Position numbers and translations under genes: made by a program. Of a stretch of 37,423 nt of DNA, positions 1 to 37,399 are shown piece after piece. Source of the DNA: a virus; IMG/VR virus record IMGVR_UViG_3300035183_000538, positions 1-37,423 of that record; one strand, given 5' to 3'. The notes under the pieces were generated by a model. It ran no database searches, was not told the DNA's origin, and saw only the letters and a list, made by a program, of their open reading frames with translations. Positions within the stretch are counted from its first letter, which is position 1. Each line of letters opens with the position of its first letter.

Positions 1-158
1 CGGGCAGCGTTGTTGTGATAATAATTCAAATAGTGATATTTAGCAAACATTTTCCAGTAATAGTTTTTCTCCGATGTACCGGAGACTTCGTAGATTTTGA
101 AGTTGAGGTCTGGTCGTTTTTTTTTTCATCGCATGTTCGAAAGGTCATCGTGTCGGTT
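1..158. repeat. Terminal direct repeat, left copy
   Basis: Bases 1-126 are identical to 37266-37391. The next 32 bases (127-158) match 37392-37423 at 26 positions; the differences are at 127, 130, 138, 146, 148 and 149. A repeat of about one assembler k-mer at both ends is typical of a circular or circularly permuted phage genome reported as a linear contig. The six mismatches cluster at the extreme right end and change two reading frames, so they are either contig-end errors or real strain variation. The true genome would then be about 37.27 kb. Confidence 0.85.
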
Positions 159-727
159 TCAAATACCCAATCAGGCAAAAGCCACTCTTCTACATCGAAG
201 TGACATGTGACGGCTATGAACTTTTTGCTGGTTCTTCGGATCGCTTTCTGCAATGCGAAAGAGCCAACCTTTGCCACTTGCCGGTCAACTACGCTGGTGA
301 ACTCATCGAATACTATTAAATCGTTGTCGCTTAAAATTGCACGGGCTAAATCCACTCTCATTTTTTCGCCATTACTCAGCACATCGTAAGGCTTCAGCCA
401 ACTTGGCGGGCTGTTAAATCCAACAGAGTTGAACGTCTTTACTATCTCATCAACCGTTTTGCTTTTGGGCATGTCGTCCAGCACTGATTCACTTTCATAG
501 GCGAAGCGAGTAATGTATGCATCAGGATAAAGCTGCTTAGCTATGGTTGTTTTGCCGGTTCCGGACTTGCCGACAATTAAGCCTATCTGCCAGCCTTCTG
601 GCGGCTCTATTGAGCCGGTAAAGCGCTCTTCAATGTGATTGCTTTGCAGGTCAAACTTGCCCATCACTGAAGCTATACGGAAGGTCTTTGGCGGTGCTGC
701 TTTTTTCACAATGTCAAAAGTCGGCAT
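26..727 (-). CDS. ABC-type ATPase linked to a Mom-like GNAT
   Basis: This is a soluble P-loop ATPase with ABC features: Walker A at residues 53-61 (GKSGTGKTT), signature LSNGEK at 117-122, Walker B LIVFDEF at 137-143 and an H-loop His at 176. It has no membrane segment and no partner permease, so it is not a transporter. It overlaps the ParB-like gene upstream and runs into the GNAT gene across the contig junction, an association I recall for phage Mom-type DNA modification loci. Real homology probably stops near residue 201: from there the frame crosses an A10 tract (117-126 on the plus strand) and the last 32 or so residues read GNAT DNA in the wrong frame. A -1 slip at A10 would fuse it to the GNAT. 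The right-end copy instead has a stop here, overlapping a GNAT start. Confidence 0.8.
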   Translation of the reverse strand: MPTFDIVKKAAPPKTFRIASVMGKFDLQSNHIEERFTGSIEPPEGWQIGLIVGKSGTGKTTIAKQLYPDAYITRFAYESESVLDDMPKSKTVDEIVKTFNSVGFNSPPSWLKPYDVLSNGEKMRVDLARAILSDNDLIVFDEFTSVVDRQVAKVGSFALQKAIRRTSKKFIAVTCHFDVEEWLLPDWVFETDTMTFRTCDEKKNDQTSTSKSTKSPVHRRKTITGKCLLNITI

Positions 728-1512: not shown

Positions 1513-2439
1513 ATGAAATCGAACTACATAGAAAAGATAAGAAAAAACTTAGAACAAGGGAAAAGCGTAAAATCAATACTGAAAAAAATTTATGAACAAA
1601 CCGGAGCTTTTGAAATTCAGCAAAATCATATTGAAAATCTTCTTAAATCGGTACTGGATTATCAGAAATTATACGAAAAAGAAAAAGAGCGTTCTGAAAA
1701 ATTCGGGTTGGAATATAAACTCGAAGCCCATCATAAGGAGCTGATCAGCAGAGAAACTGGGCAACTTTTGACCTGCCTGCAGAAATTGCTTAAGCCCATT
1801 CTGGTTGCCGACAGCACCTACGAAGGTAAGCATCAGATTTCCAAATTGATATTAGACTCAATATACGAGTCAGAAGATGTTTGCGATGTGCCTGCAAGAT
1901 TTGAAATTGCAGGTATTGGCGTTTTCGACATTGATTTGATTTTTGAAAAAGATGGTGATACGATGGAAATTACCCTTGACCTGAGTTTAGAAGGCAATTC
2001 TAAACAGATTATCTTGGGTAATTTCTATTACGATAGAAACGACCAGAAAAAGTTCGCTTATAAAGTTGAAGCGAAGGAATTGATTGAAGCTATCGATGAT
2101 TTGATCGAGCTTCAATCTCAGAATCTTAAAAGAGTAAGCCAGCAAGAAATAGCTGATGTTGTAAGAAAATTCTTCGCCGACAACAATATATCCTTCGAGG
2201 AAAATCGTGCCATAACAACAAGCACGATCTACTTTTTGGCAAACGGTCTGAAAATAAGAGTTAGTGATCATGACAAGGTCACTAACCCCTCTAAAATGTT
2301 CACGACATCTGACCCTTTCTTCATGCAGCGCTATCAAAAAGCCCAGGAGAGGGAATTGCCCAATTTTGATTTCGTAGCCGGTAAATATCCAAGCGGCAAA
2401 GAATACTTTGAAAATGAGATGAAAAGAATATTCGGGTAA
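1513..2439 (+). CDS. Hypothetical protein, first gene of a plus-strand operon
   Basis: A 308-aa soluble protein that I cannot assign. The first 80 residues are Lys/Glu-rich and predicted helical or coiled coil; the middle (about 130-190) is beta-rich; the C-terminal third contains a segment ending IRVSDH, similar to small conserved modules in Bacteroidetes mobile elements. No membrane segment or nuclease motif is visible. An in-frame TTG lies at 1492, but the promoter geometry puts the transcript start near 1496, so the ATG at 1513 is used. The gene is transcribed opposite to almost all of the genome, divergently from the ParB-like gene, and is followed by two small genes and a terminator. 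An early or host-takeover role is possible but not shown. Confidence 0.75.
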   Translation: MKSNYIEKIRKNLEQGKSVKSILKKIYEQTGAFEIQQNHIENLLKSVLDYQKLYEKEKERSEKFGLEYKLEAHHKELISRETGQLLTCLQKLLKPILVADSTYEGKHQISKLILDSIYESEDVCDVPARFEIAGIGVFDIDLIFEKDGDTMEITLDLSLEGNSKQIILGNFYYDRNDQKKFAYKVEAKELIEAIDDLIELQSQNLKRVSQQEIADVVRKFFADNNISFEENRAITTSTIYFLANGLKIRVSDHDKVTNPSKMFTTSDPFFMQRYQKAQERELPNFDFVAGKYPSGKEYFENEMKRIFG

Positions 2440-2471
2440 GCCATTCGCTAAAGACAAAAAACCAAAAACAT

Positions 2472-2639
2472 ATGAAAACACTGGAGGAAATTTTAATTGA
2501 ACAGGCACAAAACGGCTTTAATACGTACGGCCGTTACGCTATCACCGCAGCCGATATCCGGGCTGCAGCAAAAAGCGAATTTCTGCCCATCACAAAGGCA
2601 GACTTTGGAATTCGCCTGATCAGGCGTTCAAAGTCCTGA
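2472..2639 (+). CDS. Small hypothetical protein (55 aa)
   Basis: A short frame starting MKTLEEILIEQA and ending in RLIRRSKS. It lies 32 nt after the 308-aa gene and 30 nt before the next gene, in an otherwise compact operon. The start is preceded by an A-rich stretch, as at other starts here. The N-terminal half is predicted as an amphipathic helix and the C-terminus is basic (Arg/Lys-rich), which could suit nucleic-acid contact. I do not recognise a family. Support comes from operon position, start context and normal amino-acid composition. Confidence 0.55.
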   Translation: MKTLEEILIEQAQNGFNTYGRYAITAADIRAAAKSEFLPITKADFGIRLIRRSKS

Positions 2640-2669
2640 ATCCTTCTCAACTCAATCGCAGGCGCAAAG

Positions 2670-2987
2670 ATGGAATACTTTGCTGTAAAAGGCGGTGAAA
2701 TATTCCGGACTGAAAGATTCATCCCGACATCTATCAGACTTGACCAATGGTGCTTTGACATTATCGATGAGCAGGCAGAAAAGCTTGAGGTTGAAAAAGT
2801 CGTCCAGTATTTGGAGGCGTGCGATCGCTTCCATGCGCAAAATCCGGAAGATACTCGCACAGACTATGACTGCTTTACGTGGTTTAAGGGGTCGAACACC
2901 GTAATTCTGGCTCCGAACTATAGCGAGGTTAGAGGTAGCCTGCCAAAGTCGGCAAAAAGGGTCATCCCCGATTACTCTTCGGTTTAA
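2670..2987 (+). CDS. Hypothetical protein (105 aa)
   Basis: Last gene of the plus-strand operon, ending about 95 nt before a hairpin terminator. The product is an acidic soluble protein with one long predicted helix (about residues 25-50) and no recognisable motif. Two further frames overlap it, one on each strand, but this one fits the operon direction, the spacing and the terminator. Function unknown; probably acts with the two upstream genes. Confidence 0.6.
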   Translation: MEYFAVKGGEIFRTERFIPTSIRLDQWCFDIIDEQAEKLEVEKVVQYLEACDRFHAQNPEDTRTDYDCFTWFKGSNTVILAPNYSEVRGSLPKSAKRVIPDYSSV

Positions 2988-3082
2988 AATTCGAATCAAG
3001 CTTTTCCATCTTTTCATTTTCTTAATTATCTTTGCCTTAAGCAAATCACAATAAGGCATTAGCCGTAGTGATAAATCACTTT

Positions 3083-3107
3083 ACGCCCGCAACACGTGGG
3101 CGTTTTT
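3083..3107 (+). terminator. Rho-independent terminator of the plus-strand operon
   Basis: An 8-bp stem (3083-3090 with 3096-3103, containing one G-T pair) closes a 5-nt loop and is followed directly by a run of T (3103-3107). The stem has no T-run on the other strand, so it serves plus-strand transcription and separates this operon from the convergent oxygenase gene. Confidence 0.75.
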
Positions 3108-3110
3108 ATT

Positions 3111-3824
3111 TTAATCCATTCCATTGATACTGTAATAGACAATGCTATCTCTATAATCGCCTTCGAATGCACTCACTCCATGCATTATCTCTCTGACATT
3201 GAGCAGCGCAAGCGAATAGCTTTTGCTGTCAATGCACAGATCTAACTCGGGCAATACAAGGTTGCCGCCTTTGCCTCTCCGCTTGTAAAATATCAAATTC
3301 AAAACAGACGGCAAAGAGGCAGTGTCGTAGTGCAACCCAAGCAAACCATTGAAGTTAACCGAACCACTGGTGAAATGACTTGAGATGCAAACGGATTCAT
3401 CGCACAACAACCTCTGTTGCCGTTTTTGATTTTCAAAAATTTCTTTTATCTCAGCATTCTTAGCGGATGCAAATTCAACGCCTAACTCACCGAGTAGTGA
3501 AACGGCTTTCAGCACTTCAATATGCTCTTTTTCTTTGTGGTAAGCAGCAATAGAGCACTTGTGCCGTCCTAAACTACCATCCGTTCTCAACCCGCCAAAA
3601 AAGATGCTCTCTAATTGCCGGCCACCATATACGTGTGGAATGAATGACTTTTTATCATCTCTGCATCCTTCAACGATAAAGTCAATCAGAAACCTGATGT
3701 TGGCAGTCGTTTCAGGAAAGTATGCGCCAACTATCTTCCCTTTGTGTCTGATGATGGTTTCTTCAGTAACATTGGGCTCGTGCCATCCTGGTATATCCCG
3801 CTCCTTATAATCGCTCAATTCCAT
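3111..3824 (-). CDS. 2OG-Fe(II) dioxygenase, TET/JBP-like
   Basis: A 237-aa protein whose C-terminal half carries the full facial triad of 2-oxoglutarate/Fe(II) dioxygenases: H165-x-D167 (GLHYD), H215 (MHGV) and the 2OG-binding R225 (YRDSIVYY), with the GGNLVLPEL strand at 187-195. The spacing and the GLHYD/GG.LVLPEL pattern resemble the TET/JBP branch, which hydroxylates thymine or 5-methylcytosine in DNA. This suggests base hydroxylation in phage DNA. It is the last gene of the cas9-like operon and overlaps the 76-aa gene upstream by 20 nt. With the ParB-ATPase-GNAT group and the glycosyltransferase elsewhere, it suggests modified virion DNA. A role on protein or free nucleotide cannot be excluded. 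Confidence 0.75.
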   Translation of the reverse strand: MELSDYKERDIPGWHEPNVTEETIIRHKGKIVGAYFPETTANIRFLIDFIVEGCRDDKKSFIPHVYGGRQLESIFFGGLRTDGSLGRHKCSIAAYHKEKEHIEVLKAVSLLGELGVEFASAKNAEIKEIFENQKRQQRLLCDESVCISSHFTSGSVNFNGLLGLHYDTASLPSVLNLIFYKRRGKGGNLVLPELDLCIDSKSYSLALLNVREIMHGVSAFEGDYRDSIVYYSINGMD

Positions 3825-4035
3825 TCTCTATCTCTTTTAATTCAGTTTCCAGAATTGCTATTGCCGAAAGTATTCTATTGCGTCTCAAATATAGAGGATA
3901 ATTGCGATGCATCAACTCTATCCTTCTGTCAACCATTGACAATAGACTTTCATCTACCTTCTCAGGTAGCATCGCCCAAAGCTCAGATGCTTTCTGCTCG
4001 TGCTTTGGCTCTTCTATGCCGTTAAGATATTTCAT
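3805..4035 (-). CDS. Small hypothetical protein (76 aa)
   Basis: A helical, charged protein with no transmembrane segment; the last 30 residues (RNRILSAIAILETELKEIENGIERL region) are predicted to form a coiled coil. It overlaps the helicase stop by 14 nt and the oxygenase start by 20 nt, so it is translationally coupled to both. No family recognised. The context suggests an accessory subunit of one of its neighbours. Confidence 0.65.
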   Translation of the reverse strand: MKYLNGIEEPKHEQKASELWAMLPEKVDESLLSMVDRRIELMHRNYPLYLRRNRILSAIAILETELKEIENGIERL

Positions 4036-5578
4036 TATTCAGTAATTTAATATTATCCTGCTTCATGAAGTGCGATATATCATTGCTCAAGTCAATCTTG
4101 CGCTGATAAAGATTATTCACATAGCCCTCCACGCTGTTGTTGATATAGATATTATGCGAATAGCATTGCTTCTTCTGAGTCAGCCTGTCAATCCTTCCAA
4201 CGCCCTGAAAGCGATGTATCGGGTTAAGCGAATGACCGAACAGAATCACATGGTTGGCATTAGGAAAGTCGAGCGACTCCGCACCGCAGCCATAGCTTGC
4301 AATAAGTATGCGATACTTGCCTTCTCTGAATAAGTGAATGGCCAGTGCATTATCTTCATCGCTTCGCTCGCCGTGCAGCTCAATGAATGATTGCTGCTGC
4401 TCAATCATTGCTTCCCTGGCAATAGATATGTCCGAGTATTTCCCATTAACGGTGAAGCCGAAAATAATTACTTGGTCGGTTCCAGGAATATTTTTGAGTA
4501 TCTCTCTGAGCTTGCATTTCTTTAACTCCGCCCCTCCTGCACGATAGCAGCAACGCACCATCAAAGAGTAAACATCTACTATGCTTTGATTGTCTTTAAT
4601 GATTCTATTGCTGCGGTTATATATAGCATTCATAGTTGCTGATTGATTGGCGTTCAGCATCAGCTTGTGCTCTACTTCAATAACTCTCCTGTCATCATAG
4701 TCTTTGCGATTGCGATGGAAAATGTATGGAGCAACAGATTGAAGGAAGTTTAACATTGATCTTACTCCTTTAATCTTATCGCCGTTCACGTTCAGGTAGT
4801 GATATGCTTTTTTGCCTTCTTCAATGATTATCCGCTTGTCAATGGCGAAGAATATTCCGAACAAGTCAAGCACGCCATTGATGCAGCTCGTTGCGGTTAG
4901 TCCGTGAACATAGCCTGCACTGAATACCGAAATGCGAACGTTGTTAGCCAGCTTGCAATCGGGTGTCTCATTGATAGCAATAATGCCGTTCTTTACTCGG
5001 TGGCACTCATCAATAATCACGCAATCGCTCTCACCGATACTTTCGTCTCTGTTGTAGCTGAACCAGTTGATGCTTACTACTTTCAGTTCAATAGCAGGAT
5101 TCAGCCATCGCTTGAATGATGTGTTTAATTGCTCAATTGACCGCTCGTATTGCGGTGTAATCCAGTATAGGCGCTTTATCTTGCCATGACGAAAAAGAGT
5201 GTTGGCAATTTCAATTGCTATTTTTGTTTTACCGCAGCCCGTCCATAGCCAAATCAAGCTGCGTTTCAACTTCACTGCAAATTCGACTGCTTCTTTTTGA
5301 ACCTGCACCAAGTCGGCAGGAAAGTCTTTTTCATCAATGCCGGTAACGAATTTAAAGTCTGGCGGTAGCTTTTGCTGCAGCAAGTCAGATAGTGAGATAT
5401 CGCTGAACGATTCGTTCGCCTCAAACCAATCTTCAACTACTACGCTGTATGAGTTGCCACTCGGCCTCATATCTACTATGGCAGCGTTTGGTATCCAAAA
5501 CCTGCTGCCATTCATGAACAGCTTTGCCTTCTTGGTTGACTTAACCAAGACTAAGTTGCTTGCAATTTTCAATCCCAT
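4022..5578 (-). CDS. SF2 DNA helicase/translocase coupled to the Cas9 homolog
   Basis: A 518-aa superfamily 2 ATPase. Motif I TGCGKT is at 113-118, the DECH box (motif II) at 190-193, GLTATS (motif III) at 226-231, motif V around 424-437 and motif VI HRFQGVGRIDR at 455-465. The DECH box and overall order suit a DNA helicase or translocase of the UvsW/SNF2-like phage type. Residues 15-60 form a small N-terminal beta domain with a FWIPNAAI segment, often found ahead of phage helicase cores. Its start codon lies 38 nt inside the end of the cas9-like gene, so translation of the two is linked. No DnaB-type helicase is seen elsewhere, so it may be the main replication helicase; partnership with the Cas9 homolog is inferred from the overlap. 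Confidence 0.85.
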   Translation of the reverse strand: MGLKIASNLVLVKSTKKAKLFMNGSRFWIPNAAIVDMRPSGNSYSVVVEDWFEANESFSDISLSDLLQQKLPPDFKFVTGIDEKDFPADLVQVQKEAVEFAVKLKRSLIWLWTGCGKTKIAIEIANTLFRHGKIKRLYWITPQYERSIEQLNTSFKRWLNPAIELKVVSINWFSYNRDESIGESDCVIIDECHRVKNGIIAINETPDCKLANNVRISVFSAGYVHGLTATSCINGVLDLFGIFFAIDKRIIIEEGKKAYHYLNVNGDKIKGVRSMLNFLQSVAPYIFHRNRKDYDDRRVIEVEHKLMLNANQSATMNAIYNRSNRIIKDNQSIVDVYSLMVRCCYRAGGAELKKCKLREILKNIPGTDQVIIFGFTVNGKYSDISIAREAMIEQQQSFIELHGERSDEDNALAIHLFREGKYRILIASYGCGAESLDFPNANHVILFGHSLNPIHRFQGVGRIDRLTQKKQCYSHNIYINNSVEGYVNNLYQRKIDLSNDISHFMKQDNIKLLNNEIS

Positions 5579-8306
5579 AACTTCTTAGCGTTTCACCTAA
5601 CTGATTCACTTCAACCTTTTTGATTTTCAGCCACTCATCGGCTTTTATCTTGTGTGTGTCCGTAGCAGATAGTATGTGTATAGGGCGAAGTGACAAAGCT
5701 TCTGCTGCTCCAACAACAAACCACCGCCTGCCGTTCAGCTCAATAATATCATTCTCAAAAAGCATGAAGGACGGCTCGATTGTCTTTCCTTCATTAAGCT
5801 GATCGATGTGCTGTATAAGCGCAATGGCTTCTTTTTTCACCTTCCCTTTTTCATCAATCCATACTTTGAGGCAGTAGTTCTTATCGCTGAAAACATAGTC
5901 AATCTTGCGCTCGAAGTCCTTATACCTATATGTCCTTCCACTGCCGTCAGTAGAGTGAAGGGCAAATATCTTCTCTGCATTCTGAGCAACCGATACACGC
6001 TTAACAGGCTTGCCGTTGTGCGTTATCGGATTTTCAATCAATGATAAAATACCATCTTCATGATTGCTCTTCTCTGCTATTCTTGCTTGTATCTTTTCAC
6101 GAATGGCTTTGTCCATTATCTTCGGGATCATCGCTTCGGTGAGCTTACTTACGGGTTGACGGATTTTGAAATATTCCTGCTCTACGATCTCCCCTTTGGC
6201 ATTTCTGCTTTTAATCTCTCTCCTGCCGTACATACTTTCCTTGTGCAGCGCGAATCGAGGCGTGAAGCCGAACTTCGTTTTACGCACAAACTTGATGCGT
6301 GGTATAAAAACAGGGGCATTCTCAAAATCAATCGATGCAAGTGCCGGCTGAATTGCATACACTGAGACGCTGTCATTGCTTTCGCTGTGCTGCTTGATGC
6401 TGTCGAAGTAGTTCACGGTGTCCTGGCTCATATTAGCCATTACCCACGCCTTGCATAAATAGTGCCTTGCGTCTTGCTCGCCATAGCTATCAACTTTCCA
6501 CTCTTTCATATAGCGACTGATTAACTTGTTTGGAATATTCACGGCATTTCCGATAGTGGCAAAGCAGCGGGTGTTGTAGTCGCTGTTTTGACGTCTTGAA
6601 AGCCAATCGGTCGGTATATCGGCTTCACTCATTAGAAGAAGTTCCTTCTTGCTTTCTGGGAACTTTTCAACTGCTTTCCGATACGCCTCTTCAATGCCTA
6701 AGTGCTTCGCAAAGTCAAGCCCCGTCATCCTGTCTTTCAACTTGTTCAACTCGGCCCGACAAAGCACCTGATTGGTCATACTACGCTCGAACAGCTTGCT
6801 TTTCGGCACTATATGGTCAATGTTGTATTGATCCGTGAATAGCTGACTTCTATCAATTATCACATCAGGCTCGTAAGGACTGATGCCGCCGCTTTCTTCC
6901 CATAATTGCAACTTAATTCTGTCATACTGGCTCAACTCAGGATATTGCTTCGCCAACTTTTCTTCCTTGCGCCTGCTCTGCGCTATCTCTTTCCTGCCTT
7001 TGTTGCTCTGCTTCAGCAAGTGGTCAATCTCGAATTGGTACTCGGTAATTGGATACTTCGACTTCAGCTGCTCAACCAGTGCTTTATAGCTTTCAAAGTG
7101 TTGCTCTAAGACAACGTTGCGCAGTGCAACTTCGCCCATTGCTACTTTGCCGTAGACATCAAGTATGGCTTCTTTCAATCTCTTGCCCTGCTGCATCAGC
7201 GGCAGTAGTTTTCTGATAGCTTTCATGCTGTAATCTGACCAGCCTAATTTGTTGAAGTCGAGGTCGAGCAGCTCATTGATAACGGTGTCGCTGAGCTTAT
7301 ACTTATCGGCCAGTAGCCGACCGAGCCGTTCATTGTCGGTAGCCGAGTAGATGTCTTGCCATAACTCGTAGTAATCGGCTTCAATCTTTAGTTCTGAGAA
7401 GACTTTGTTGATGGGATTGCCGGCTATCACTTTGCCGCTATACCAAGTATATTGCGCCGGCCTCTTTATGCCTAAGTCCTTCAGGCAGCTTGCTTTGGTC
7501 AGGTTCTTGCCTGCGTTGCACTTTTCGAACCATCGCTTGCGCTGCTCGAAGGATATTTCCAGCTCATTTTTTTCTGCATCATATATGACAATGTTCATCA
7601 CATCACGCCAGATTCTGAATGTTTGATAAATCGGGTTGCTGGCGTGGCATACGCTGCGGTTGCTCTCGTACTTGCATCTTGCAACCTTTGGCTTTTTGAG
7701 AGGGCGCTGATAATAGATGATATCAAATATCTTCTTGCGCAACTTCTCATCTATCTGCTGCCTGTCCATTATTTTGTTGAACTCCCTCTCGTAGCTTTTT
7801 CTGGTAACAATGACGTTCTTGCTGCTATCCATCGTAAGCAGATATGCTGCTAATGATGGATACTGCTTCAGCTCCTCTTCGTGCCTTTCAATCTCTTTCA
7901 GGTAATCGCTGTTGCTATCGTTCACGCCACGCAGCGACTTATAGCCACGTTTCTTCTGTAGCTGCATCAATACATTAACTAACTCTTGATTGGATAGCTT
8001 TTCGGTAAGACCTTTCACACGCAGTTGCAAATTCTCTGTGCGTGTGAGATGCTGCGGCTTGCAGCCGAAGTGCATTTCAAGTAATCGCAATAAGTTGTTC
8101 CTTCGGCTTTTGTAGCGCCATAGGTTGCGCCGTGCCTGCGCTTTCATGCGTCTATTGATACGCTTACTTACTGGCAGCCCGGCAATGAACTCGTAGTAGT
8201 CATCGAATGAGACATTAACTCTTTTAATGCCGTATTTGATAATATCTTCTCCTTCGGTAAGGACATAGGCTATCGCTCGCAAGCCTATGTAGGTGTTTAG
8301 CTTCAT
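5541..8306 (-). CDS. Cas9 homolog with intact HNH and degenerate RuvC
   Basis: A 921-aa protein with Cas9 architecture. It has an Arg-rich bridge helix (about 47-75), RGYKSLRG at 120-127, the type II-C recognition-lobe block YYQRPLK at 198-204 followed by NPIYQTFRIW at 224-233, an HNH domain (about 460-560), RuvC-like segments on both sides, and a C-terminal region (about 640-921) where the PAM-interacting domain should be. HNH residues D497, H498, N512 and N521 keep the exact SpCas9 spacing (839/840/854/863). RuvC is broken: the first motif reads IGLRAIAYVL, losing the catalytic Asp and the following GTNS turn; motif II keeps E426; in motif III, RHYLCKA (614-620) replaces HHAxDA, giving Tyr616 and Lys619. 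A bound target would be nicked, not cut. Length is near the small end for Cas9. No cas1, cas2 or array is present. Confidence 0.9.
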   Translation of the reverse strand: MKLNTYIGLRAIAYVLTEGEDIIKYGIKRVNVSFDDYYEFIAGLPVSKRINRRMKAQARRNLWRYKSRRNNLLRLLEMHFGCKPQHLTRTENLQLRVKGLTEKLSNQELVNVLMQLQKKRGYKSLRGVNDSNSDYLKEIERHEEELKQYPSLAAYLLTMDSSKNVIVTRKSYEREFNKIMDRQQIDEKLRKKIFDIIYYQRPLKKPKVARCKYESNRSVCHASNPIYQTFRIWRDVMNIVIYDAEKNELEISFEQRKRWFEKCNAGKNLTKASCLKDLGIKRPAQYTWYSGKVIAGNPINKVFSELKIEADYYELWQDIYSATDNERLGRLLADKYKLSDTVINELLDLDFNKLGWSDYSMKAIRKLLPLMQQGKRLKEAILDVYGKVAMGEVALRNVVLEQHFESYKALVEQLKSKYPITEYQFEIDHLLKQSNKGRKEIAQSRRKEEKLAKQYPELSQYDRIKLQLWEESGGISPYEPDVIIDRSQLFTDQYNIDHIVPKSKLFERSMTNQVLCRAELNKLKDRMTGLDFAKHLGIEEAYRKAVEKFPESKKELLLMSEADIPTDWLSRRQNSDYNTRCFATIGNAVNIPNKLISRYMKEWKVDSYGEQDARHYLCKAWVMANMSQDTVNYFDSIKQHSESNDSVSVYAIQPALASIDFENAPVFIPRIKFVRKTKFGFTPRFALHKESMYGRREIKSRNAKGEIVEQEYFKIRQPVSKLTEAMIPKIMDKAIREKIQARIAEKSNHEDGILSLIENPITHNGKPVKRVSVAQNAEKIFALHSTDGSGRTYRYKDFERKIDYVFSDKNYCLKVWIDEKGKVKKEAIALIQHIDQLNEGKTIEPSFMLFENDIIELNGRRWFVVGAAEALSLRPIHILSATDTHKIKADEWLKIKKVEVNQLGETLRSYGIENCKQLSLG

Positions 8307-8356
8307 AATACTTGTTTTTCAATTTGATTGCTTCAGGGTATAATACATTGTTATGA

Positions 8357-11357: not shown

Positions 11358-11392
11358 AAAAAAACAAAAAGCCCCAGATTAACTCTGGGGCT
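11358..11392 (-). terminator. Strong rho-independent terminator of the early operon
   Basis: On the minus strand a 9-bp GC-rich stem (AGCCCCAGA with TCTGGGGCT; 11384-11392 with 11370-11378) closes a 5-nt loop and is followed by a broken run of T (TTTTTGTTTTTTT). It ends transcription of the replication and recombination genes before the terminase promoter. Confidence 0.85.
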
Positions 11393-11696
11393 CGCTCGAG
11401 ACGGCAAGTATTATTGCCAAGCTGTGTACTTGCCGTCCTCGCCCTTTATCATAACCTTAAGATGAGCGCCAAGCACAATGCGTGCTTCATAGCACTCAAC
11501 TATCAGGCTTTCAAAGTGCTCAAAAACACAAAAACAAATTTTTCAGCAATTTTTTTACATTTTTTTCTTTTATATATGATGTTTGTTAATATACACTGTG
11601 CTTAAATGGTGTGTATGTGCCTTCTTGTAGAGTGGGTGCTGCGCTATTGTTAATATTATAGCCCGGAATTATATTTCAAAGTAAGACGCATCATTA
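11393..11696 (-). other. Structured intergenic region with possible gene remnants
   Basis: Transcribed as the tail of the early operon. An 11-bp hairpin (11400-11410 with 11427-11437) precedes the terminator. Upstream, 11492-11497 can pair with 11464-11469, with an inner stem 11471-11476/11482-11487; alternatively 11491-11496 can pair with 11515-11520. The two states exclude each other. Two short stretches also look protein-like but lack a usable start: one ends GEDGKYTAWQ just before the 11-bp hairpin, the other ends EGTYTPFKHSVY near 11585. They could be decayed small genes or genes with an indel error. I cannot decide between a regulatory RNA 3' end and remnants, and no plus-strand gene is convincing. 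Confidence 0.4.
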
Positions 11697-24275: not shown

Positions 24276-24643
24276 GCACATGCACTGCAGACGATCGCAT
24301 ATGATCTCATATGCGCGCGCATGATCGCATATGTGGTGCAGACGCTATGCATGTGATACGCATATGTAGTGCACGTGCCATACATATGCACGCACATGCA
24401 CTGCACATGATCGCAGATGATACGCATATGCAGTGCACACGACGTGCATATGATGTGCATACGATCGCAGATGCTATGCGCGTGATATGCATATGTAGCG
24501 CATATGATCGCATGTGCTGTACACGTGCTGTACATATGATATACACATGTCATGCACATGTTGTACATATGTAGTGCACGTGCATCGCAGATGATTGCAC
24601 ATGATACGCACGTGCTATGCACATGCTATGCATCTGCGATCAT
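24276..24643. repeat. Array of degenerate 11-nt palindromic units (array 1)
   Basis: About 33 units of 10-11 nt share the core GCAnRYG with variable joints, e.g. GCATATGTAGT, GCACATGCTAT. The sequence alternates purine and pyrimidine almost throughout, so AA, TT, GG and CC steps are rare. Units carry six-base palindromes such as CATATG, CACGTG, GTGCAC, TGTACA, ATGCAT and CGATCG, and a 12-base palindrome lies at 24311-24322. There are no constant repeats or unique spacers, so it is not a CRISPR array. The period is close to one DNA turn, suggesting phased protein binding, Z-DNA or cruciform tendency. Frames through it give Cys/His/Met-rich translations that are artefacts. Confidence 0.8.
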
Positions 24644-25087: not shown

Positions 25088-25204
25088 TGCAGATGATTGC
25101 AGATGTAGCACGCATGCTATGCACGTGCTATGCATATGATCGCATATGCGCGCATATGATACGCATATGCATTGCATGTGCATGCAGATGCGAAGCGCAT
25201 ATAT
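25088..25204. repeat. Array of degenerate 11-nt palindromic units (array 2)
   Basis: About ten more units with the same core (GCATATG, GCACGTG, GCAGATG) and the same purine-pyrimidine alternation, including GCATGC and TGCGCGCA palindromes. It lies about 445 nt from array 1, on the other side of the GC and AT blocks, and ends about 50 nt before the MuF gene stop. Confidence 0.75.
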
Positions 25205-36901: not shown

Positions 36902-37399
36902 TTAGCCGCCATGCTGCGATATTAGCTCCCAGCTTGTCGTCAGTCTGTTACTGCTGCCGAAATGTCCTGCTCCATTAAGCCCTTGATGAGGATTTTTTCT
37001 GCCATAATGCACACATCTCCAATTCTTATCCTTTTTTAAGCCAAAGACTAAAGAAGGCGAGCTGGTCATAATCGTGTAGCGATACCCTTCCGATATGATT
37101 ATCCTGCCCACTTCATTCAATAGCCTGATGCCTATGCTAATACCCTGATAATCGGGCAAAACGACAAGACGATGCACTCTTTTAATATTTGGAGACAGTG
37201 GGTGCGGAGTGTGCAAAACGCTACAAAACCCGCATACTTCATCGTTGATCATTGCGATGAAAATTCGGGCAGCGTTGTTGTGATAATAATTCAAATAGTG
37301 ATATTTAGCAAACATTTTCCAGTAATAGTTTTTCTCCGATGTACCGGAGACTTCGTAGATTTTGAAGTTGAGGTCTGGTCGTTTTTTTTTTAATAGCAT
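36902..37399 (-). CDS. GNAT acetyltransferase, Mom-like
   Basis: A 165-aa GNAT protein. Motif A is RLVVLPDYQGISIGIRLLNE (residues 77-96), where the QGISIG loop binds acetyl-CoA, and FAKYHYLN (30-37) resembles the HHYL segment of phage Mom-type enzymes, which add a carbamoylmethyl-like group to adenine. The C-terminus has a RKNPHQGLNGAGHFGSS stretch. It lies after the ABC ATPase across the contig junction. In the right-end sequence it has its own ATG overlapping the ATPase stop; in the left-end sequence it has none and would need a -1 slip at A10 from the ATPase. Either form suggests a functional link. I expect a DNA modification role. Confidence 0.75.
   Translation of the reverse strand: MLLKKKRPDLNFKIYEVSGTSEKNYYWKMFAKYHYLNYYHNNAARIFIAMINDEVCGFCSVLHTPHPLSPNIKRVHRLVVLPDYQGISIGIRLLNEVGRIIISEGYRYTIMTSSPSLVFGLKKDKNWRCVHYGRKNPHQGLNGAGHFGSSNRLTTSWELISQHGG

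What the first reader, a model, noticed from the sequence alone, without database searches (positions are those of the whole stretch)
5541..8306. Phage-encoded Cas9 homolog with intact HNH but dead RuvC
Seen: bridge helix, type II-C recognition-lobe blocks and an HNH centre with exact SpCas9 spacing (H498, N512, N521). The RuvC-I Asp and its turn are missing, and RuvC-III reads HYLCKA where HHAxDA is expected. Known: Cas9 needs both nuclease sites for a double-strand break, and HNH alone nicks the guide-paired strand. Inference: a natural RNA-guided nickase or binder carried by a phage, possibly used in replication, in control of host or rival DNA, or to capture host guide RNAs. The mutations spare HNH specifically, so this is not general decay.
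Basis: partly seen in the sequence, partly recalled or inferred. Interest (0 to 1): 0.96.

Follow-up and report, generated by a model that had tools for sequence, protein, structure and literature searches.

The report
Phage Cas9 with half-disabled scissors
A bacterial virus carries its own stripped-down Cas9 that has lost one of its two DNA-cutting sites, together with a matching helper RNA. It probably steals the host's CRISPR guide RNAs; this kind of system was described from sequence in 2023, and no experimental test of it was found in the papers searched.

Summary
Window 5541-8306 (minus strand) encodes a full-length 921-aa type II-C Cas9. Its RuvC-I Asp is Tyr6, the RuvC-III His/Asp are Tyr616/Lys619, and the RuvC-II Glu426 and the whole HNH site are kept. 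It is not new in kind: Altae-Tran et al. 2023 (PMC10910872) described phage II-C Cas9s with dead RuvC, active HNH, an SNF2 helicase and a tracrRNA, later named variant II-C2 (PMC12669027), and proposed that they capture host crRNAs. This window fits: helicase neighbour, no CRISPR array, and a tracrRNA that I located at 3040-3107 (+). Additions here: two divergent orthologues (71% and 45%) share the RuvC losses, intact HNH, helicase and tracrRNA core, under purifying selection (pN 0.20, pS 0.82). The tracrRNA, a TET/JBP-like dioxygenase, a small ORF, the helicase and Cas9 form one 5.3-kb block shared by two phages with no other detectable similarity: a mobile cassette. The anti-repeat is short (13-16 nt), and with proxy repeats its duplex is weaker, not stronger, than host duplexes. 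A pure decoy does not explain the intact HNH; 'decoy or guide-hijacking nickase' is a testable open question.

The parts
5541..8306 (-). RuvC-dead, HNH-intact type II-C (variant II-C2) Cas9, 921 aa
8289..8291 (-). codon of Tyr6, position of the RuvC-I catalytic Asp
   Evidence: alignment
7029..7031 (-). codon of Glu426, RuvC-II Glu (kept)
6723..6857 (-). HNH domain (aa 484-528) with D497/H498/N512/N521/K524 intact
   Evidence: DNA of 6802-6907 is one of three stretches still alike in the 45%-identity phage G397
6450..6452 (-). codon of Lys619, position of the RuvC-III catalytic Asp
4022..5578 (-). SF2/SNF2-like helicase whose ORF overlaps the end of cas9 by 38 nt
   Evidence: phrog_62 DNA helicase E 1.7e-38, Helicase_C and ResIII, FUN30/fft3/SNF2 chains; helicase at the same place in L111 and G397
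3805..4035 (-). 76-aa ORF of unknown function, conserved in the cassette (58% in G398)
3111..3824 (-). TET/JBP-like Fe(II)/2-oxoglutarate dioxygenase (PHROG and some RefSeq records call it queuine tRNA-ribosyltransferase)
   Evidence: H165-x-D167, H215, R225 invariant with phage 'Tet-like J-binding proteins'; 81% in G398
3040..3107 (+). tracrRNA: anti-repeat AAGCAAATCACAA, nexus UAAGGCAUUAGCCG, terminator
   Evidence: covariance model of host II-C tracrRNAs hits 3030-3112 +, 27.3 bits, E 0.0015; 79% identical over 68 nt in G397, E 1.5e-7; core invariant in three phages; fold z -4.1
3027..3034 (+). TATCTTTG, match to the Bacteroidota -7 promoter consensus TAnnTTTG, just 5' of the tracrRNA
   Evidence: sequence; TATATTTG and TACATTTG at the same place in L111 and L109; consensus from general knowledge
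3083..3103 (+). intrinsic terminator of the tracrRNA
3011..8310 (.). whole cassette: one colinear DNA match to phage G398 (70.6% over 5334 columns), the only DNA match between the two phages

Best explanation
It is a member of the phage type II-C2 Cas9 group and most likely acts as an anti-CRISPR by guide capture. Shown: Cas9 fold, lost RuvC site, retained HNH site, a phage tracrRNA whose anti-repeat matches the repeat family of Bacteroidota II-C arrays, no array of its own, selection to keep it. Inferred: the phage tracrRNA pairs with host crRNAs, the phage Cas9 binds the hybrid, and host Cas9 is starved of guides; where a guide matches the phage genome, the phage complex can occupy the site and at most nick it, so no double-strand break is made. 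The helicase and dioxygenase are probably accessory counter-defence parts of the same cassette (weak inference).
For: RuvC Asp to Tyr and Asp to Lys in all three divergent phage Cas9s, HNH kept. tracrRNA in the window by covariance model and in L111 and L109. The 13-nt core AAGCAAATCACAA (window) and 15-nt GAAAGCAAATCACAA (L111) are exact parts of the repeats of eight host arrays. No array-like repeats in the window or in the parts of G398 and G397 read. pN/pS 0.195/0.818. Phage clade monophyletic, support 100. Independent published description with a matched host: perfect anti-repeat and four host spacers against the phage (PMC10910872).
Against: A pure guide sink need not keep an HNH active site, yet all three do. 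With proxy host repeats the predicted crRNA:tracrRNA duplex is weaker for the phages (-17.9 kcal/mol window, -22.7 L111) than for the hosts' own (-26 to -28 for matching repeats), opposite to the published case. The true host is unknown; no convincing spacer match to the window was found among 1118 spacers or in a 393-genome search. No activity has been measured.
Confidence: 0.6

Rival explanations
1. Guide-hijacking nickase: the phage Cas9, loaded with host crRNAs through its own tracrRNA, nicks guide-matched DNA (its own protospacers, rival phages or plasmids) with HNH. Nicking is the function; the helicase then acts at the nicked site.
For: HNH residues intact in three phages at 45-71% identity. 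HNH pN against L119 is 0.32, below the whole-protein 0.38. The HNH-site DNA is one of only three stretches still alike with G397, beside the tracrRNA. Helicase adjacent in all three.
Against: HNH is not clearly more conserved than the rest (53/105 against 402/894 identical). Host guides would mostly point at phages, including this one. No activity data.
Confidence: 0.27
2. RNA-guided binder that represses host or rival genes with host-derived or unknown guides, like a natural dCas9.
For: RuvC dead; natural dead effectors of other families exist (TldR, Cas12m).
Against: HNH is kept, which a binder does not need; no phage-encoded guide was found; the tracrRNA fits host repeats instead.
Confidence: 0.07
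3. Nuclease used in phage replication or recombination without RNA guides.
For: The phage also encodes RecT, an exonuclease and a replication initiator.
Against: The tracrRNA is conserved with the gene; the other phages carrying the cassette share no replication genes with the window; bridge helix and REC motifs are kept.
Confidence: 0.04
4. Degenerating or captured host cas9 with no function.
For: RuvC residues are lost and the protein is shortened; long stem branch 2.44.
Against: Open frame, pN/pS 0.195/0.818 with every domain alike, same substitutions in three phages, conserved tracrRNA, exchange as a cassette between unrelated phages.
Confidence: 0.02

Closest known systems
Phage type II-C2 Cas9 (Altae-Tran 2023, PMC10910872; named in PMC12669027; reviewed in PMC11656645)
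   Same: Phage-encoded II-C Cas9, RuvC inactivated, HNH apparently active, SNF2-type helicase beside it, no CRISPR array, tracrRNA nearby with an anti-repeat to II-C repeats.
   Different: RuvC-II Glu is retained here, whereas the PMC11656645 legend speaks of three inactivated motifs. The anti-repeat is only 13-16 nt and not predicted to out-pair host tracrRNAs with the proxy repeats. The cassette also holds a TET/JBP-like dioxygenase and a small ORF. Whether this very contig was in the published set could not be checked.
Bacteroidota type II-C Cas9 (e.g. L015, L056, Persicobacter P0002)
   Same: Domain order, bridge helix, HNH, C-terminal motifs, tracrRNA nexus.
   Different: Those are longer (about 1100-1400 aa) with full RuvC sites and, where complete, cas1/cas2 and arrays; identity to the window is at most about 30%.
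CbCas9 (8iyq) and Nme1Cas9 (6je4), solved II-C enzymes
   Same: Best sequence and fold matches.
   Different: Both nuclease sites active as wild type; cellular immune effectors (from knowledge).
IscB with inactive RuvC and active HNH next to an inactive Cas12 (PMC10910872)
   Same: Same split of RuvC dead and HNH alive, predicted nickase.
   Different: IscB, not Cas9; found with a Cas12 system.

Membership tests
Type II Cas9 | Passes the curated Cas9 profile and has the Cas9 fold | tested here: met
   TIGR01865 203.7 bits against cut-off 100; Foldseek top hits all Cas9
Type II Cas9 | Intact RuvC active site | tested here: not met
   D to Y6, H to Y616, D to K619; E426 kept
Type II CRISPR-Cas locus | CRISPR array with cas1/cas2 | tested here: not met
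   No array-like repeat in the window; no adaptation gene among the proteins scanned
Phage variant II-C2 | Encoded in a phage genome | tested here: met
   Terminase, portal, tape measure and structural genes; exact 126-nt terminal repeat
Phage variant II-C2 | II-C Cas9 with inactivated RuvC and apparently active HNH | tested here: met
   by residues; activity itself untested
Phage variant II-C2 | SNF2-type helicase association | tested here: met
   SF2/SNF2-like helicase overlapping cas9; PF00176 in the G397 neighbour
Phage variant II-C2 | tracrRNA near the locus | tested here: met
   3040-3107 +
Phage variant II-C2 | Anti-repeat perfectly matches the host repeat and pairs more stably than host tracrRNA | tested here: inconclusive
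   13-nt core is exact in eight proxy repeats, but duplexes are weaker than the hosts' own; real host unknown
Phage variant II-C2 | Inhibits host CRISPR immunity | not testable with these tools
   needs experiment; no experimental test found in the held papers

The most novel reading that the evidence does not exclude
A mobile phage counter-defence cassette (tracrRNA, TET/JBP-like dioxygenase, small ORF, helicase, RuvC-dead Cas9) that turns host crRNAs into guides for an HNH nickase: immunity's own guides direct single-strand nicks that replace double-strand breaks or strike rival elements, while DNA modification protects the carrier phage.
Probability: 0.2. Interest if true: 0.85.

Novelty: new member of a known kind. 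Interest (0 to 1): 0.52.

Why it matters
Anti-CRISPRs derived from Cas proteins are very rare, and in the papers found II-C2 is known only from short computational descriptions. Here three members give conserved parts, exact coordinates and a compact cassette that can be tested. The retained HNH site makes a clear question testable: guide sink or natural RNA-guided nickase. A natural 921-aa HNH-only Cas9 could also interest genome engineers.

Tried and rejected
Exact-peptide scans of IMG/VR and GTDB with the Cas9, terminase (25) and a structural protein (26) found nothing. A general Cas9 alignment scan gave nine viral contigs: the six with long Cas9 frames group with ordinary Cas9s (the alignment columns show no other RuvC-III loss) and three have only a short HNH protein; not relatives of this kind. 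The GenBank-phage hit MT837457 is an ordinary Cas9 with intact RuvC-I. First tracrRNA guess, 11369-11545 (-), a strongly folded RNA with a terminator (z -4.25), was dropped once the covariance model found 3030-3112 (+). Smith-Waterman with host repeats at score 30 missed the short anti-repeat. Host search by predicted repeat GTTGTGATTTGCTTAAGG in 393 genomes: none. Spacer search: none convincing; 20 kb of window DNA against the same 393 genomes gave only weak short matches, many in AT-rich stretches. Structure of the dioxygenase was unusable (pLDDT 42). The PHROG name queuine tRNA-ribosyltransferase was rejected for 3111-3824 in favour of TET/JBP-like dioxygenase by motif. Decay and host contamination were rejected.

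Full report
OBSERVATION. It passes NCBIfam's Cas9 model at twice the cut-off, has Pfam HNH_4, and an AlphaFold model built on 50 aligned sequences (pLDDT 78.2, pTM 0.58) finds full-length Cas9s as its closest solved structures, first Nme1Cas9, E 4.8e-33. The TM-scores (about 0.5) are modest, as expected for a multi-lobed protein with movable lobes.

ACTIVE SITES. Against 88 other Cas9s the RuvC-I motif LGLDIG reads LNTYIG, so the Asp is Tyr6; RuvC-III HHAxDA reads HYLCKA, so His and Asp are Tyr616 and Lys619; the RuvC-II Glu is kept as Glu426. No acidic residue lies in the first RuvC strand to stand in. The HNH centre is complete: D497, H498, N512, N521, K524. The comparison set was fetched partly with HNH and RuvC-III patterns, so it is biased towards intact sites; the window's departure is nevertheless plain, and the two plasmid loci inspected (L003, L004) are ordinary type II systems with cas1 and cas2.

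RELATIVES. Exact-peptide scans failed. Scanning IMG/VR with the tracrRNA core AGCAAWTCACAATAAGG found two phages with the same system: IMGVR_UViG_3300044994_000363 (L111/G398, Cas9 71% identical; L123 is a near-copy) and IMGVR_UViG_3300031578_000039 (L109/L119/G397, 45%). All three have Tyr for the RuvC-I Asp and Lys for the RuvC-III Asp, all keep the RuvC-II Glu, and all keep the HNH residues. Window against L111: pS 0.82 (saturated), pN 0.195, similar in every domain, so the whole protein, including the dead RuvC fold, is under purifying selection. The three form one clade with full support on a long stem outside the sampled II-C Cas9s (midpoint root, for drawing only), so RuvC loss probably happened once. 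Lys619 and Glu426 being fixed together suggests a salt bridge in place of the metal site (inference, not measured).

GUIDE RNA. A covariance model from 17 Bacteroidota II-C tracrRNAs hits 3030-3112 (+) at 27.3 bits, E 0.0015, the next best hit being 14.6 bits. The RNA has AAGCAAATCACAA, then UAAGGCAUUAGCCG, then a terminator; a TATCTTTG box, matching the Bacteroidota -7 consensus TAnnTTTG (general knowledge), stands just upstream. DNA of 3040-3107 is 79% identical in the distant phage G397 (E 1.5e-7), and the core is invariant in the three phages. The third nexus pair, A-U in hosts, is C-G in the phages, which keeps the small hairpin. The anti-repeat matches the GTTGTGATTTGCTT repeat family exactly over 13 nt (window) and 15 nt (L111). 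Predicted pairing with such repeats is -17.9 (window), -22.7 (L111) and -17.0 (L109) kcal/mol, against -26 to -28 for those hosts' own tracrRNAs. The published 'more stable than host' feature is therefore not reproduced here; the real host repeat is unknown and could match over a greater length.

CASSETTE. Window 3011-8310 aligns in one piece with G398 2436-7729 (70.6% over 5334 columns), and nothing else of the two phages matches at the DNA level or by BLASTP. The block runs from the tracrRNA promoter to four bases before the cas9 start. It holds the tracrRNA, a 2-oxoglutarate dioxygenase, a 76-aa ORF, the helicase and Cas9, and its GC content fits each phage. The dioxygenase has H165-x-D167, H215 and R225 in common with phage 'Tet-like J-binding proteins' that sit beside ParB-like or methylase genes; the window too has a ParB-like gene. 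With G397 only Cas9, the tracrRNA and a distant helicase (PF00176 SNF2 there), plus weak matches of two structural proteins, are shared; DUF5131 and a radical-SAM gene lie nearby. Against G397, the DNA that still matches is the HNH site (6802-6907), the tracrRNA and a REC segment.

WHAT IT IS. Altae-Tran et al. 2023 (PMC10910872) reported a phage II-C Cas9 with inactive RuvC and active HNH, beside an SNF2 helicase, without array, with a tracrRNA whose anti-repeat matched the host's repeats, and proposed that it derails host CRISPR by binding crRNAs. PMC12669027 calls it variant II-C2; PMC11656645 repeats the proposal. The window meets every structural feature except the stability claim, which is inconclusive. 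No experimental test was found in the held papers.

HOW IT WORKS. Most likely the phage Cas9 with its tracrRNA soaks up host crRNAs (about 0.6). Shown: the parts and their conservation. Inferred: RNA binding, competition, protection. The main misfit is the preserved HNH site, which a pure sink would not need; a guide-hijacking nickase is the leading rival (about 0.27). Replication use, repression and decay are less likely.

LIMITS. Host unknown; no convincing spacer match; only three independent members; the start of the tracrRNA is inferred from a promoter box; whether this contig is among the published examples could not be checked because supplements were closed.

Noticed in passing
window 11369-11545 (-): Strongly folded intergenic RNA (z -4.25) ending in the strongest terminator of the first 19 kb; no Rfam family at its gathering score.
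   Followed up: partly
window 24276-24625 and 25089-25190: Degenerate direct repeats with an 11-nt period around GCANNTG, largely non-coding; possibly replication-protein sites or bent DNA.
   Followed up: partly
window 26-727, 706-1371, 36902-37399: ABC-type ATPase, ParB-like protein and GNAT acetyltransferase; ATPase and GNAT match the two halves of phrog_11143. With the TET/JBP-like gene they suggest DNA hypermodification.
   Followed up: no
window 1-126 and 37266-37391: Exact 126-nt terminal repeat; the six mismatches of the longer 158-nt match lie only at its far end. Genome is circular or terminally redundant, about 37.3 kb.
   Followed up: yes
window 3111-3824: RefSeq and PHROG label this family queuine tRNA-ribosyltransferase, but motifs fit a TET/JBP-like 2-oxoglutarate dioxygenase; probable misannotation across many phages.
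   Followed up: partly
L005 9563-13628: IMG/VR contig with tail genes next to an intact Cas9, a Cas1-like protein and a repeat array; probably a prophage edge or a viral CRISPR system.
   Followed up: no
L123 about 6440-7438 against G398: Two near-identical phages carrying the cassette differ by a roughly 1-kb stretch upstream of cas9.
   Followed up: no
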